A stretch of 41,809 nucleotides of DNA from a virus. A model generated the notes under the pieces. That model was not told the DNA's origin. It saw only the letters and a list, made by a program, of their open reading frames with translations, and did no database searches. Both the position numbers and the translations under genes were made by a program. The stretch spans positions 1-41,809 of the IMG/VR virus record IMGVR_UViG_3300028743_000204. The stretch is one strand, 5' to 3'. Positions within the stretch are counted from its first letter, which is position 1. The number at the start of each line of letters is the position of its first letter. This document shows positions 24,993 to 35,949 of the stretch, one piece after another.

Positions 24993-25136
24993 CTACATCT
25001 TGTAGGCCATATCATCGCGCCATACATGGGCCTTGCGCACCCAATACACCAATGGGCATCGGGCTATAGCGCACCGTACATTGCGTGGCCATCGCGCTTT
25101 CTTGGCGCGCGAGGTTTTTTCCTCCATACCCTTCAC
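24993..25136 (-). CDS. Possible small basic protein
   Basis: 47-residue frame starting at GTG 25136, overlapping the stop of the Rha-family gene by four bases (GTGA), or at ATG 25127 (44 residues). The product is rich in Arg/Lys/Trp with one Cys pair (C-A-I-A-R-C). No recognised family and no strong ribosome-binding site. Overlap-type junctions are the rule in this operon, which supports it being real. Confidence 0.4.
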   Translation of the reverse strand: MKGMEEKTSRAKKARWPRNVRCAIARCPLVYWVRKAHVWRDDMAYKM

Positions 25137-25897
25137 TGGATCAGCCTGATGCCGCGCCGGTAAACCCGGCCATTGCTGTCTTTGGCGCCCGGAATACCGC
25201 CGCGCGACAGGGCGCGGCCAAAGCTGGTCTGCGTTTCCGGCACGTTTTGCTGTTCTGCGCACCAGGTCACATAGGATCGGTACAGCTCTGCCGCGCCCGC
25301 CCGTGCGTTGGGATCCGCCACACAGCATTCGGCTATCCAATCCTCGGCATTGCACCCCATGCCCGGCGGGGCCGCATGGCCGCTGGCCGCGTATTGCAGC
25401 AGGGATTTGGGCATATCTGGCATGGGCAGGCCCAGACTTCGCCAAAGCTGCCGCGCGGCAGCCTTGCCAAACACCTGCCGGGCCTCGCGCACCACGGTGA
25501 TCGCGGGCAGGATATCCTCCGCCAACTGTGGCGGGGCAGGGGATGCGGGCGGATCATCATGGAACGCCTCGCGCGCACCCAGCAGGCGCTGCTCCATCGC
25601 GTCAAACGCATCGATCCAGCGGGACTGGATTTCCAGCGCCTTGGCGCCGGAAAAGCCCATCACCAGCAGCATGAAGCCCTTGCGATCCATGTCATATCGA
25701 GGCGAATCCCTAAGACCGCCATCGCCTGCTTTGACCTGATAGACTTCGCGCGCAAAATTGCGCGTGAAGTCGGGTACGGCTTTCAGCTTGGCTCGAATGG
25801 CGCGCAGCACATCATTATGCCGTTTGCCAAAATCTGCTGCCACATCACGGCTATCGGCCACTGCGCGGCCATCATCGATCCTAACCAGCGCGCTCAT
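25133..25897 (-). CDS. Rha-family regulatory protein with D5-type C-terminal module
   Basis: 254 residues. The N-terminus (about 5-105) is a Rha domain, as in the phi-80-type Rha regulator: D-S-R-D-V-A-A-D-F-G-K-R-H-N-D-V-L-R and a later F-M-L-L-V-M-G-F-S-G-A-K-A. The C-terminus (about 195-252) contains Y-x-S-Y-V-T-W-C, S-F-G-R-A-L and G-R-V-Y-R-R-G, matching the C-terminal winged-helix of this phage's own D5-type helicase. Rha proteins are thought to regulate phage genes or respond to host IHF status. The fused module suggests targeting to similar DNA. ATG 25897 overlaps its upstream neighbour. Confidence 0.8.
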   Translation of the reverse strand: MSALVRIDDGRAVADSRDVAADFGKRHNDVLRAIRAKLKAVPDFTRNFAREVYQVKAGDGGLRDSPRYDMDRKGFMLLVMGFSGAKALEIQSRWIDAFDAMEQRLLGAREAFHDDPPASPAPPQLAEDILPAITVVREARQVFGKAAARQLWRSLGLPMPDMPKSLLQYAASGHAAPPGMGCNAEDWIAECCVADPNARAGAAELYRSYVTWCAEQQNVPETQTSFGRALSRGGIPGAKDSNGRVYRRGIRLIQ

Positions 25898-26148
25898 GCT
25901 GCCACTCCATGCGCAGGGCCAGCGATCAGCAGCGCTTGCACATCGCCAGCCATGGACCATAGGCCGCGCAGGGCATCGGCCATATAGGGCGCGAGTTCGG
26001 GATTGAGTGACAAGGCATAGGCCATAGAGCCAAGGCATTCGATACGATTGGTGGCCTCACCAATCCGACTGGCATCATCACCAGATAAATCAGCCAAGAT
26101 TCCGGTTGGCGCTTCGCCCACGCGAAGGCTAATGACTTGGGCAGCCAT
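25894..26148 (-). CDS. Early protein, unknown function
   Basis: 84-residue protein starting at ATG 26148, chosen for a strong AAGGAAGGAT site. The longer frame to 26301 lies under the opposite-strand RHH gene. It is mostly helical, with an internal G-D-D-A-S-R-I-G-E-A-T-N-R-I and a Leu/Ala-rich C-terminus. No family recognised. First gene of the leftward block on the left side of the moron island. Confidence 0.65.
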   Translation of the reverse strand: MAAQVISLRVGEAPTGILADLSGDDASRIGEATNRIECLGSMAYALSLNPELAPYMADALRGLWSMAGDVQALLIAGPAHGVAA

Positions 26149-28362: not shown

Positions 28363-28533
28363 TCAATCCTCCCCATCCTCTTCGTCATTATCTGGACGCA
28401 GCACCTGATCCAGATACTCCTCTGGCGCTAACACGCCAGATCCACCGCACCTGCTACAACGATCCATGGCAAAGCCCGCGTAATCGTCCGCGCCCGTGCC
28501 CATGCAGCGCGGGCAGCGCTCCCGGATCACCAT
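28363..28533 (-). CDS. Small Zn-ribbon protein
   Basis: 56 residues with two C-x-x-C pairs (R-C-P-R-C-M-G-T-G and R-C-S-R-C-G-G-S-G), the DnaJ-type CxxCxGxG pattern, and a very acidic C-terminus (D-N-D-E-E-D-G-E-D). The start ATG 28533 overlaps the end of the D5-type helicase gene. Likely a DNA-mimicking or partner-binding accessory of replication. The role is inference. The longer frame upstream is a shadow of the helicase gene. Confidence 0.7.
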   Translation of the reverse strand: MVIRERCPRCMGTGADDYAGFAMDRCSRCGGSGVLAPEEYLDQVLRPDNDEEDGED

Positions 28534-30044
28534 CCCGGCGGGGCCGCTGGCGGCGATCCGCTGGGCACATAGCCGCTCATTTCGCCATCGGTGCGCAGGC
28601 GGCATCCCTGCCGATAGATGCGCCCATCGCCACCCTTGCGTTTCATCAGCTGCTTGTCGGACAGCGCCCGGCCAAATGCCGTACTGCTCATGATCTCGCG
28701 GTCGCCCACGCTGTTTTCTTCGCACCAGCGCTTATAGCTGTCGTACAGATCCTTGGCCCCGCATCGATCACTCGGCCCGCTGGTGTCAACCGACGTGGCG
28801 AACCACTCGCCAAAAGGGTTGGCTGCTCGCCGGTAATCATCGACCGCCTCCTTGACCTCTTCGGGCTGCTCCAGCTTGCCCGCTTCCAGCCAGGCGATCA
28901 TGCCCTCGATCATCCACGCCAGAACGCCAGGCCCTTGCTCCAGCAGTTTTTCCTTAAAGCGCTTGTCGGCCTTATCCTTGAACTGGTTGGGGAACTGGAT
29001 CACGATCATGCGCCGCCAGATGCCATCATCATCGCCAGATATGCGCGGCTTGCGGTTGCATTCAAAGAATACCTTAAACCGGGGCAGATACTCGAAAATC
29101 CCCTTGTGCAACTCGCGCACGGCAATGGGCTGGCCGCCGGTGATCTGCTTGATCCGCGCCTCATCCAGCGCCGCGCCAATGCGCGGCTCCCCGGTGGAAA
29201 CCAGCCGCGTATCACCCGACAAACGCGCCAGATCCGGCGTGGCCTCGCCGCCGCCACGCTGCGTCCCCGCGATAAACGTCTCCACACTCGCCGCCGCGCC
29301 ATAGCTGCCCATGGTCTGGCGGATCACATCCATGGTGGTCGATTTCCCGTCGCCACCCTTGCCCTGCAACAGGAAGATACACTGTTCGGTGATCTCACCA
29401 GATAGGCCATAGCCCGCGCTCGCCTGAAAATAGGCCCGAACGCTGGGCGAGGGGAGCACCGTTTCCAGATGCACATCCCACCGATCGCGCACCGCCTGCG
29501 GATCCCAATTCACCGCCGTCATACGGGTGATCCGATCTGCCGGATCATGCGGAAATTCGCGCACGGCCCATTTCCCGTTGCCCTGAATAATCCGCAATGT
29601 GGCGCTGGGCGTGTTGATGGCCAGCGCCTCGGTGTCAAACTCATCACGACGGGCAAAAATCTCGCCCTGCGCTTGCGCCAGCATCCCGATGATCTTGTGG
29701 CTATTGCCGGTCTGGATCGCATGCTTATACAGCGCCCCGATCCGCTCCTCCCAATCCTCGCCTACCTCGGATGCCTTGGCCTTATCCATCGCGGCCAGAG
29801 CATCGCCCAGCGCCTGCGCCTCGACCGGGATATGGCGAGCCACTTCCTGCGCCAGCTTCTTGGCCATGCGCTCGCCATCCTCGGCGCTCCACCGCTTGCC
29901 ATCATAGGCCGACCAATGGTCTTCCACCCACAATAGCTTGCCCTGTGCAAGATCGCGCAGACGCGCCGCATTGCCAATATCGTTCAGCTCATACCACGCC
30001 ATCCGCGCCGGATCGGGCGGGGTTGCGTCAATCACATCGGCCAT
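28527..30044 (-). CDS. D5/P4-type replicative helicase
   Basis: 505 residues of the phage/plasmid primase P4-like family (C-terminal helicase type). The N-terminal D5_N-like region is at about 20-200. The superfamily 3 helicase core follows, with L-L-Q-G-K-G-G-D-G-K-S-T (Walker A, 225-236), G-D-T-R-L-V-S-T-G-E-P (about 277-287) and an arginine-finger-like G-I-W-R-R-M (341-346). A C-terminal winged helix lies at 425-483. No own primase motif is seen, and the separate DnaG-type primase upstream supplies it. The start at 30044 gives the right spacing to GGAGG; ATG 30050 is too close. Confidence 0.9.
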   Translation of the reverse strand: MADVIDATPPDPARMAWYELNDIGNAARLRDLAQGKLLWVEDHWSAYDGKRWSAEDGERMAKKLAQEVARHIPVEAQALGDALAAMDKAKASEVGEDWEERIGALYKHAIQTGNSHKIIGMLAQAQGEIFARRDEFDTEALAINTPSATLRIIQGNGKWAVREFPHDPADRITRMTAVNWDPQAVRDRWDVHLETVLPSPSVRAYFQASAGYGLSGEITEQCIFLLQGKGGDGKSTTMDVIRQTMGSYGAAASVETFIAGTQRGGGEATPDLARLSGDTRLVSTGEPRIGAALDEARIKQITGGQPIAVRELHKGIFEYLPRFKVFFECNRKPRISGDDDGIWRRMIVIQFPNQFKDKADKRFKEKLLEQGPGVLAWMIEGMIAWLEAGKLEQPEEVKEAVDDYRRAANPFGEWFATSVDTSGPSDRCGAKDLYDSYKRWCEENSVGDREIMSSTAFGRALSDKQLMKRKGGDGRIYRQGCRLRTDGEMSGYVPSGSPPAAPPGW

Positions 30045-30046
30045 GC

Positions 30047-30775
30047 TCATCCCTCCAGCGCCCGCCGTGCGGCCGCAGCCTGCGCGGCGAGGCGCCCAAT
30101 CACTTTGGTGCTCTTTTTCGCCTTGGGTGCAGGTTCGCCCAGCATCCGCTGCAAGGCAGGATCCTTGGTGGCGGCCTGCACCGCACCAAAGGCCTCATGC
30201 CGTTCAAATACATCGATATAGGCGTGGCGCGTTGCTTCGGCGGCCAGCACTGCCTCGCGCCCATGCTTGTCGATCAACTCCACGCGGCGGCAAACCTCGC
30301 TGATGCGCGGCGCATCGTACCCTTGCGCCTTTGCCACTTTCAGCGTCCCGGTTATCTCCGCAGAAATCTCGCGCCGCCTGGCGCGCAGATCCAGCACCAG
30401 GGCAATCGTCGCCACCAGCACCTTTTCCGCATCCGGATCGAGCAGCTTGACCAGCCCGGACAACTCGGCGAGCCTGATTTCGGTCACCTGCGCCGCCTTG
30501 GCCTCGGCCAGCAGCAAGAGCGCCTCGCGCTGATCATCCGCACTATGGTCACTACTGCCCAGCGCCGATTCATAGACCACCAGCAAGGCATCACGCTCCC
30601 GCCTGATCCCCGGTTCCATGGCGCGCCGCTTCACTACCTCGCGCAAGATTTCCGGCGGATGGCCTTGCGATTTCGCCTCAAGGTATATGTCGCGGATATC
30701 CTGCCGTATCCCGGCAATCTCTTCTATCAGCCGCTCGATCCGCTCGACATAGGAAAGCACCTTCTCATCCATCAT
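30047..30775 (-). CDS. Tandem GapR-domain (DUF2312) DNA-binding protein
   Basis: About 241 residues. Residues about 4-72 match GapR: Y-V-E-R-I-E-R-L-I-E-E, D-I-R-D-I-Y-L-E-A-K-S-Q-G and L-R-E-V-V-K-R-R. After a linker, residues about 116-190 repeat the same plan in weaker form (D-L-R-A-R-R-R-E-I, L-K-V-A-K-A-Q-G, I-S-E-V-C-R-R-V). A basic tail (K-A-K-K-S-T-K) ends the protein. Host GapR is a roughly 90-residue protein that clamps overtwisted DNA ahead of polymerases. A linked double version beside helicase and primase suggests a role at phage forks. Starts 30775 or 30772 both fit GGGGAGG. Confidence 0.8.
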   Translation of the reverse strand: MMDEKVLSYVERIERLIEEIAGIRQDIRDIYLEAKSQGHPPEILREVVKRRAMEPGIRRERDALLVVYESALGSSDHSADDQREALLLLAEAKAAQVTEIRLAELSGLVKLLDPDAEKVLVATIALVLDLRARRREISAEITGTLKVAKAQGYDAPRISEVCRRVELIDKHGREAVLAAEATRHAYIDVFERHEAFGAVQAATKDPALQRMLGEPAPKAKKSTKVIGRLAAQAAAARRALEG

Positions 30776-32028
30776 GATCGCCTCCCCTGATCCAGATCGT
30801 TGAAATCATGCCCGGCGGGCGGGCGGAACACATTCACCCGGTTTGCCCCCGCATGGCGCCACCACCATGCGGCCAGATCGGCACAGCGCTGGCTGCGCTC
30901 CATGCCGGAAAGATCACGCTGCACCGGCTTGGCGCCCTTGGCGTCAATCACCCACCGGGCTTTCACGGGCTTCATATCGGCATCAATCCCGATGCTCACC
31001 CGGCCCGGTTCGGCAATGATGAACGGGGCCGGTCGGTTCACATCGCCCGCCAACTGCCACAACGGCTCCGCCTCCATCCGGCCCACCCGCGCGGCGCTGC
31101 CCTCCATATTGCCCAGCGACAGCGCCGCGCAGATCAGCCGCGCGCCAGATTGCCGCGCCGCAAAAGACAGGCTGGATTCGATACCCTCGCCCACCAGCAG
31201 GGCGCCATCGGCATCCAGCAGATCAAGGATCGTATCGGCCACGTGCGCTATCGGCGCGATCCGCTTGCCCGGCATGATGACCGCGCCGCCCTTGCTCTCA
31301 CCCCACATTAATCGGGTGGCGGCGCTCTGCCATTCGCCCGTGCGCCGGTCCTGCCAAGGCTCAAAATAGGCCTTACCCCGCCCATCGCCAGACAACAGCG
31401 TGATATGCGCCCCCACCATGGATAGGCTACGCTCACCCGTGCCGCCGCGAACGCGCAGGATCGGCGCCACCATGGCGGGCGCAATCCGCCGTGCATCCTC
31501 TGGGCTCTCCCACCGCCGCCACAGCGCGCCGGGGCATCGCGGGTGAAACCGGATCACGTCCAGCGCACCGCTGCTTTCCGGATCAATGCCACGCGCCCGC
31601 ATCCAGTTCTCTACGATCGTGCCCCGCGCAGGCCGGGCTTGCTCCCAAACTGCCAGCGCGGCCTGCTGACCTTCAATATAGGGGGATGCCTGCCGATCTG
31701 GCGCCGTCTGCGCGCGTGGGGCGGATGCCCCCGCCATGCCTACCGTGCCAGCGCGCTCCTCCAACTCTTGTAAGGCGGCCATGAAAGACAGGCCATCGCG
31801 TTCCATCACCCAACGGATCAGATCGCCATGCGCACCGCATCCAAAGCAATGGTAAAATCCCTTTTCGACATTGACGGTAAAGCTGCCCGTCTTCTCGGTA
31901 TGGAAAGGGCATAGGCCGCTCTGCTCGCGACCCTTACGGGTCAGCTTGACCACGCGCCCGATGATTTCAACCAGGTCAACGCGGGCCTTTACCGCGGCAA
32001 TTCGCGCACTGATCGATGGCCCGGCCAT
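30772..32028 (-). CDS. DnaG-type primase (CHC2 + Toprim)
   Basis: 418 residues. The CHC2 zinc finger is at about 38-66: C-P-F-H (C40, H43) and H-C-F-G-C-G (C61, C64). A central region follows. A Toprim-like domain contains A-L-L-V-G-E-G-I-E-S-S (about 275-285), with Glu as likely metal ligand. It makes RNA primers for phage replication, presumably with the D5-type helicase. ATG 32028 has an AAGGAGG site. It overlaps the GapR-like gene. Confidence 0.9.
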   Translation of the reverse strand: MAGPSISARIAAVKARVDLVEIIGRVVKLTRKGREQSGLCPFHTEKTGSFTVNVEKGFYHCFGCGAHGDLIRWVMERDGLSFMAALQELEERAGTVGMAGASAPRAQTAPDRQASPYIEGQQAALAVWEQARPARGTIVENWMRARGIDPESSGALDVIRFHPRCPGALWRRWESPEDARRIAPAMVAPILRVRGGTGERSLSMVGAHITLLSGDGRGKAYFEPWQDRRTGEWQSAATRLMWGESKGGAVIMPGKRIAPIAHVADTILDLLDADGALLVGEGIESSLSFAARQSGARLICAALSLGNMEGSAARVGRMEAEPLWQLAGDVNRPAPFIIAEPGRVSIGIDADMKPVKARWVIDAKGAKPVQRDLSGMERSQRCADLAAWWWRHAGANRVNVFRPPAGHDFNDLDQGRRS

Positions 32029-34953: not shown

Positions 34954-35037
34954 CCTCTCCGAATGCCGATGGGCTGCCCTGACTCTCCCCTTGGACCCAC
35001 CGGCCACCTTTCCCAACCAGCCAAACAGGAGACTTCC

Positions 35038-35949
35038 ATGGCTGATACCGAAACGCTTACCCGCGCTGATCGTATTGCCCTCGCGCGCCAATATCATGCC
35101 GATGGCGCTATCATCCAGAACGCCTGGCAGGGCGAAGATAACGGACGCCATCTGGTCTGCGCGCTGGCTGCTTTTGGCAAGCCCGGTGAGATCAACGGCA
35201 CGTCTGACTGCCCCGCTGATCTTATGCCGAAATGGCTGGCAGAACTGGTTCCCGCCATTGATGATGGGATCGCTAAAAATCAGGTCCTTTGGTTCTCCGC
35301 CGCGCTGATTGATCGCGCTGAGCGCTGGCAGGTTCTGGATGATGCAGCATGGAAGCGCATCCAGACCGGTATTCTGATCGCGGGCGTCAAGCAGGCCATT
35401 CAGGCAGCCAGTGCAGTGCATCAGGACAATCCGCCCGAATACTGGCCGAAGGTGACGGCTGCATGCGAGCAGGTATGCACGGCCCTTGAGACGGGTAATG
35501 GGCTGCCAGAGGCGAGAGCGGCGGCTTATGCGGTGGCTGATGCGGCGAGAGCGGCGGCTTATGCGGCGGCTTATGCGGCGGCTGATGCGGCGAGAGCGGC
35601 GGCTTATGCGGCGGCTTATGCGGCGGCTTATGCGGCGGCTTATGCGGCGGCTGATGCGGCGGCTGATGCGGCGGCTTATGCGGCGGCTTATGCGGCGGCT
35701 GATGCGGCGAGAGCGGCGGCTTATGCGGCGGCTTATGCGGCGGCTTATGCGGCGGCTTATGCGGCGGCTTATGCGGCGGCTGATGCGGCGGCTGATGCGG
35801 CGGCTGATGCGGCGGCTGATGCGGCGGCTGATGCGGCGGCTGATGCGGCGGCTGATGCGGCGGCTGATGCGGCCTGGAAGGCATTTGCTGAGACCTTGTT
35901 CCGCCTGATCGATGTTGAACTCGACAATGCCGAGGCAGCTCATGCTTGA
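35038..35949 (+). CDS. Protein with long Ala-Tyr/Asp tandem repeat
   Basis: 303 residues. Residues 1-155 are an ordinary folded domain (L-A-R-Q-Y-H-A-D-G-A-I-I-Q, L-V-C-A-L-A-A-F, W-L-A-E-L-V-P-A-I-D-D-G) seen in other phages. Residues about 158-279 are almost pure Ala with Tyr, Asp or Arg every third or fourth residue, first mostly Tyr, later only Asp. A last W-K-A-F-A-E helix closes it. The pattern should form a long straight helix with a charged/aromatic stripe. ATG 35038 has an AGGAG site. Function unknown. Confidence 0.8.
   Translation: MADTETLTRADRIALARQYHADGAIIQNAWQGEDNGRHLVCALAAFGKPGEINGTSDCPADLMPKWLAELVPAIDDGIAKNQVLWFSAALIDRAERWQVLDDAAWKRIQTGILIAGVKQAIQAASAVHQDNPPEYWPKVTAACEQVCTALETGNGLPEARAAAYAVADAARAAAYAAAYAAADAARAAAYAAAYAAAYAAAYAAADAAADAAAYAAAYAAADAARAAAYAAAYAAAYAAAYAAAYAAADAAADAAADAAADAAADAAADAAADAAADAAWKAFAETLFRLIDVELDNAEAAHA
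35512..35874 (+). repeat. 12-bp in-frame tandem repeat array
   Basis: About thirty near-identical units of GCGGCTTATGCG or GCGGCTGATGCG, with occasional 9-bp units carrying GCGAGAGCG. The codons scarcely vary, which points to recent expansion by slippage or unequal recombination. Copy number is likely to differ between strains. The last eight units are all the GAT form. Confidence 0.9.

What the first reader, a model, noticed from the sequence alone, without database searches (positions are those of the whole stretch)
30047..30775. Double GapR protein in the replication module
Two DUF2312-like units are fused in one phage protein: a clear GapR at residues 4-72 and a diverged copy at 116-190. 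GapR senses overtwisted DNA ahead of forks. A covalently linked double form, flanked by a DnaG-type primase and a D5 helicase, could manage supercoils at phage replication forks or compete with host GapR.
Basis: partly seen in the sequence, partly recalled or inferred. Interest (0 to 1): 0.75.

Follow-up and report, generated by a model that had tools for sequence, protein, structure and literature searches.

The report
Tandem GapR protein in phage replication operon
A temperate phage of Sphingomonas-type bacteria makes a protein of two linked copies of GapR, a bacterial ring that grips overtwisted DNA; its gene sits between the phage's primase and helicase genes, and the second copy has lost most of its DNA-gripping residues, so it probably forms a lopsided version of the ring for phage replication.

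Summary
The gene at 30047-30775 is on the minus strand and encodes 242 aa. Residues 4-73 are a clear GapR domain (PF10073, E 1.3e-23). Residues ~117-190 are a second, strongly diverged GapR repeat. In the window alone this second match is weak (12.7 bits). A relative with the same architecture and operon (L113) settles it: its second half is 42% identical to the window's and hits PF10073 by itself (E 1.6e-4, nearly full length). The second-half profile also retrieves ordinary single GapRs, beats shuffles and has the same three-helix register.

I examined 16 distinct tandem proteins in phages and prophages; every named host is in Sphingomonadales. All 16 lie directly upstream of a D5/P4-type helicase gene, 13 after a recognisable DnaG-type primase. 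The second half has one origin, was never found alone, and is as conserved as the first. It keeps most of the hydrophobic dimer core and the ring-closing tyrosine but has lost most DNA-contact lysines/arginines (33% basic versus 90% in single GapRs).

Best reading: a replication-module GapR variant in which two chains (four repeats) make an asymmetric pseudo-tetrameric DNA clamp. The clamp and its supercoil sensing are inferred, not shown. Competition with host GapR is possible but untested.

The parts
30047..30775 (-). tandem GapR gene, 242 aa
30557..30766 (-). first GapR repeat, residues 4-73
   Evidence: PF10073 E 1.3e-23; solved GapR structures; helices 4-36, 41-51, 55-72
30428..30550 (-). 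linker, residues 76-116, predicted mostly helical, poorly conserved (38% mean identity)
30206..30427 (-). second, diverged GapR repeat, residues 117-190, with a 4-residue insertion before helix 3
   Evidence: helices 114-150, 155-171, 173-194
30050..30199 (-). basic, variable C-terminal tail, residues 193-242 (net charge +6 in the window, positive in all 15 members compared)
30772..32028 (-). DnaG-type primase (CHC2 zinc finger, DUF7146, weak Toprim), upstream in the operon, ATGA overlap at 30772-30775
28527..30050 (-). D5/P4-family helicase, downstream in the operon, ATGA overlap at 30047-30050

Best explanation
The gene encodes a phage-specific tandem GapR. Shown: two GapR repeats in one chain, a single origin of the second repeat, and tight operon linkage to a DnaG-type primase and a P4/D5 helicase. 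Inferred: two chains (four repeats) assemble into the equivalent of the GapR tetramer. The first repeats pair through the canonical antiparallel helix-1 coiled coil, the second repeats form the other side of the ring, and the helical linker holds the sides together; helix 3 of both repeats, with its conserved tyrosine, closes the ring. Because only the first repeat keeps most DNA-contact residues, the ring grips DNA mainly from one side. It serves the phage fork: it binds duplex ahead of the D5 helicase, senses or holds positive supercoils, and may help host type II topoisomerases remove them.
For: Both repeats are GapR. First repeat: dimer-core positions 97% hydrophobic, salt-bridge residues R26, E47, E28 and R65 kept in nearly all members, 61% of DNA-contact positions basic. 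Second repeat: dimer core 75% hydrophobic against a background of 50%, ring tyrosine invariant, only 33% of DNA contacts basic. The second repeat is as conserved as the first (64% and 61% mean identity) while linker and tail are not (38%, 29%), so it is under selection. D5 helicase is directly downstream in all 16 and a recognisable primase upstream in 13, mostly with overlapping start and stop codons. GapR needs the tetramer to sense positive supercoils (PMC8360656); helices 1 and 3 build it and helix 2 binds DNA (PMC7373187).
Against: No experiment and no multimer model. The full-length model has low confidence (pLDDT 66, pTM 0.29). Even the first repeat lost some DNA contacts (K66 nearly always, R63 in all but the window). 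Two dimer-core positions of the second repeat (41, 44) are charged in 14 of 15 members. Only 2 of 74 loci with single or other phage GapRs have a D5-like gene within reach, so GapR does not need this helicase in general.
Confidence: 0.5

Rival explanations
1. Adaptor: the first repeat binds DNA as a normal GapR dimer, while the second repeat has become a protein-docking module that brings the D5 helicase or the primase to duplex DNA.
For: Second repeat keeps a strongly conserved motif (R-W-[FI]-E-K-x-x-K-H-G-x-[DE]-A-M-R-A-G-E-A in most members) while losing DNA contacts; D5 gene downstream in all 16.
Against: The conserved dimer-core positions and tyrosine of the second repeat suggest it still assembles like GapR. 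No interaction test was possible.
Confidence: 0.25
2. Host interference: the protein mixes with or competes with the host's own GapR and so turns host replication or transcription to the phage's advantage.
For: Hosts of the relatives carry single GapRs; the first repeat keeps the dimerisation surface.
Against: Position inside the phage's own primase-helicase operon in every member points to phage replication; nothing specific supports host targeting.
Confidence: 0.12
3. The second half is an unrelated helical coiled-coil domain and the resemblance to GapR is generic.
For: The window's second half alone reaches only 12.7 bits for PF10073, below the cut-off; Foldseek gave no GapR hit.
Against: Heptad-preserving shuffles do not reach the score; L113's second half hits PF10073 alone at 1.6e-4 and is 42% identical to the window's; the second-half profile finds real GapRs; the helix register agrees. 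Foldseek also missed the first half, so its silence is uninformative.
Confidence: 0.04

Closest known systems
GapR (DUF2312 / UPF0335, PF10073), nucleoid-associated protein of Caulobacter crescentus and other Alphaproteobacteria
   Same: Three-helix repeat; helix-1 dimer core; AK-x-x-G-[FY]-D turn; helix-3 tyrosine of the ring interface; first repeat above the Pfam cut-off.
   Different: Two repeats in one 242-aa chain instead of one in about 89 aa; second repeat degenerate for DNA contacts, with a 4-residue insertion; helical linker and basic tail; in a phage replication operon; far below the NCBIfam GapR equivalog cut-off (54 against 140 bits).
Single-domain GapR genes of phages (e.g. Azospirillum phage Cd gp10, Bradyrhizobium and Caulobacter phages; Erythrobacter phage R34L1, PMC12185513)
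   Same: Phage-borne PF10073 domain.
   Different: One repeat; of 74 such viral loci only 2 show a D5-like helicase within about 8 kb.
PHROG 4212
   Same: Phage family with a GapR domain inside a longer protein; matches residues 4-74.
   Different: The match covers only profile positions 281-351 of 353; no second GapR repeat was seen matching.

Membership tests
PF10073 GapR-like DNA-binding domain, first repeat | Score above the curated cut-off of 22.6 bits | tested here: met
   82.8 bits whole protein; 77.5 bits for residues 1-89 alone
PF10073 GapR-like DNA-binding domain, second repeat | Score above the curated cut-off of 22.6 bits | tested here: not met
   Window 12.7 bits; nearest bridging relative L113 21.7 bits, E 1.6e-4. 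So it is a diverged homologous repeat, not a Pfam-level member.
Homology of the second repeat to GapR | Profile similarity beyond shuffled and reversed controls, in register | tested here: met
GapR orthologue (NCBIfam NF052541, nucleoid-associated protein GapR) | Equivalog cut-off of 140 bits | tested here: not met
   54.3 bits
GapR fold | One long and two short helices per repeat | tested here: inconclusive
   Both repeats predicted so, in matching register, but models are of low to medium confidence and Foldseek gave no GapR match
GapR function | Conserved DNA-contact lysines and arginines | tested here: inconclusive
   First repeat 61% basic, second 33%, single GapRs 90%
GapR function | Dimer-of-dimers ring around DNA | not testable with these tools
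   Needs multimer modelling or biochemistry
GapR function | Preference for overtwisted DNA and stimulation of type II topoisomerases | not testable with these tools
   Needs biochemistry

The most novel reading that the evidence does not exclude
A phage-encoded, covalently linked, asymmetric DNA clamp: two tandem-GapR chains form a one-sided supercoil-sensing ring that works as a dedicated topology factor of the D5-helicase/primase replisome. I found no description of such a role for any phage in the held papers.
Probability: 0.3. Interest if true: 0.75.

Novelty: new variant of a known kind. Interest (0 to 1): 0.5.

Why it matters
Phage forks generate positive supercoils, and many temperate phages carry no topoisomerase of their own (general knowledge). 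A tandem GapR fixed in a primase-helicase operon would be a compact phage answer, and a natural asymmetric version of the ring now used to map positive supercoils (GapR-seq). It also separates, by natural divergence, the ring-building and DNA-gripping roles of GapR subunits, which makes the disputed open/closed tetramer models testable.

Tried and rejected
Foldseek of the full model and of the C-half model against PDB gave no GapR hit; not counted against the fold because the full-length search also missed the sequence-certain first half. Searches with the window protein alone found no relative in viral or genome contigs because of strict peptide seeds; the helicase and then alignments found them. 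hhalign of the family alignment against itself listed no off-diagonal hit, probably because that alignment is shallow. tblastn of the C half against named phages found only chance hits. The domain tree shows a single origin of second repeats (support 0.95) but cannot tell duplication of the neighbouring repeat from fusion with another GapR (branch about 1 substitution per site). The genome search draws no relatives for a virus record. 'Generic coiled coil' for the second half was considered and rejected (see rivals).

Full report
WHAT IS THERE. The window is a virus record of 41,809 bases with the genes of a temperate tailed phage: large terminase, portal, head maturation protease, tape measure, tail fibre, integrase, S24-type repressor, CII-like activator, Rha-like regulator. 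The finding is a minus-strand gene, 30775 to 30047, 242 aa. It lies between a CHC2/DnaG-type primase (30772-32028) and a D5_N/P4-family helicase (28527-30050). Both junctions are 4-base ATGA overlaps, a usual sign of translational coupling.

FIRST HALF. Residues 4-73 match PF10073 (GapR_DNA-bd), E 1.3e-23 for the whole protein, and solved GapR structures, best E 2e-10. This is not a generic coiled coil: the match spans the whole 72-position domain.

SECOND HALF. On its own the window's second half is below threshold (12.7 bits, aligned to profile positions 14-49). I therefore gathered relatives. The helicase led to L002, the two-sequence alignment to L005-L010, and second-half alignments to L087-L102 and L112, L113. 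Of 15 second halves scanned alone against Pfam, six match PF10073, more than match any other of the 24,736 families, best E 0.0085. Profile-profile comparison with 72 phage GapRs gives score 31.8, probability 81%, against 12.1 +/- 2.8 (maximum 28.1) for 500 shuffles that preserve heptad position, and 11.3 for the reversed profile. The second-half profile recovers true single GapRs (L114 at 4e-8; L115 at 1.3e-6, itself 6e-41 with the single-GapR profile). L113, a tandem protein in the same primase-GapR-helicase order (read on L117), closes the argument: its second half hits PF10073 alone at 1.6e-4 over positions 2-68 of 72 and is 42% identical to the window's second half over 74 ungapped residues; the two group together in a domain tree (0.90).

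STRUCTURE. The full model predicts helices 4-36, 41-51, 55-72 and 114-150, 155-171, 173-194. The end of helix 1 and the start of helix 2 are offset by 114 residues between the repeats; the tyrosine of helix 3 (Y68, Y186) by 118. This equals the alignment offset plus the 4-residue insertion seen in sequence. The C half alone is modelled at mean pLDDT 80. Foldseek found no GapR in PDB for either model; since the full-length search also missed the sequence-certain first half, that test says nothing.

FAMILY. Sixteen distinct tandem proteins were examined (a seventeenth, L112, is close to L005). Each of the 16 has the D5 helicase downstream, in 15 of them within about 20 bases; 13 have a recognisable primase upstream. 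All five named hosts are Sphingomonadales: Sphingomonas (three records), Sphingosinithalassobacter, Novosphingobium. A draw of 399 genomes of that order gave three tandem genes (L111, which is L098 again, L112 and L113); a draw of 385 genomes of the class gave only the centre genome's own copy. The second repeat was never found without the first in the proteins I inspected; the weak genome hits looked at (L114, L115) are single GapRs; L116 (90-aa frame, E 8e-4) was not read. Second repeats are monophyletic (0.95) and as conserved as the first (64% against 61% mean identity; linker 38%, tail 29%). The window is the outlier of the set of 15 (its second repeat is 34% identical to the others).

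INTERFACES. Caulobacter GapR positions are taken from PMC7498317 and PMC7373187 and mapped through the 6cg8 alignment. Dimer-core positions are hydrophobic in 97% of cells in first repeats, 75% in second repeats and 98% in single GapRs, with a background near 50%. DNA-contact positions (R65 counted with them) are basic in 61%, 33% and 90%. Position 59 is R or K in all first repeats and in no second repeat; position 66 is E in all second repeats. Salt-bridge residues R26, E47, E28 and R65 are kept in nearly all first repeats and lost in the second. The tetramer tyrosine Y82 is invariant in both. In 14 of 15 second repeats, charged residues at GapR-equivalent positions 29 (D), 31 (R), 41 (E) and 44 (R) would face each other in an antiparallel pair of second repeats; this is my inference, and the window itself has I and T at the last two.

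MECHANISM. Supercoil recognition by GapR needs the tetramer; the dimeric truncation binds DNA without sensing topology (PMC8360656). A chain with two repeats could make the four-unit ring from two molecules, with N:N and C:C pairs as the two sides. The loss of DNA contacts on one side predicts an asymmetric clamp that grips DNA mainly through the first repeats. Linked by operon to a fork helicase and primase, its likeliest role is handling duplex and positive supercoils ahead of the phage fork. The main rival is that the second repeat is a docking module for helicase or primase. Shown: both repeats, operon, conservation pattern. Inferred: ring, supercoil preference, fork function.

NOVELTY. 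A 2025 paper reports GapR in a phage genome as a first (PMC12185513), although GenBank phage records already carry many DUF2312 genes. I found no paper in the held library that describes a tandem GapR; the library lacks most subscription journals. I rate it a new variant of a known kind, interest 0.5: the architecture is real, conserved and apparently undescribed, but the function is inferred.

Noticed in passing
L012:667-1341, L014:8001-8906, L079:14-544: Other phage GapRs carry long C-terminal extensions of 105-230 residues; a weak helix-turn-helix-like stretch follows the GapR domain in L014 and L079 (E 0.01-0.06), so GapR may also be fused to a DNA-reading domain.
   Followed up: partly
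window 34963-35949 (+): An ORF of 328 aa with a long run of Ala-rich AAAYAAADAA-type short repeats (about 35480-35900), open in several frames on both strands; no PHROG match. Its own function is unclear.
   Followed up: no
window 25133-26038 (-): A Rha-like regulator whose C-terminal part (residues 232-299) matches the C-terminal part of P4-type phage primase/helicases, so this domain is shared with the D5 helicase gene of the same phage.
   Followed up: no
public phage records: GapR domains occur in 68 phage records, including Brevundimonas jumbo phages above 300 kb and Microcystis (cyanobacterial) phages, although GapR is usually described as alphaproteobacterial.
   Followed up: no
L114:1297-1851 (-): A diverged GapR in a Sphingomonadales genome sits between ordinary GapR and the second repeat in the domain tree (C halves plus L114: support 0.91); a possible source of the second repeat.
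   Followed up: partly
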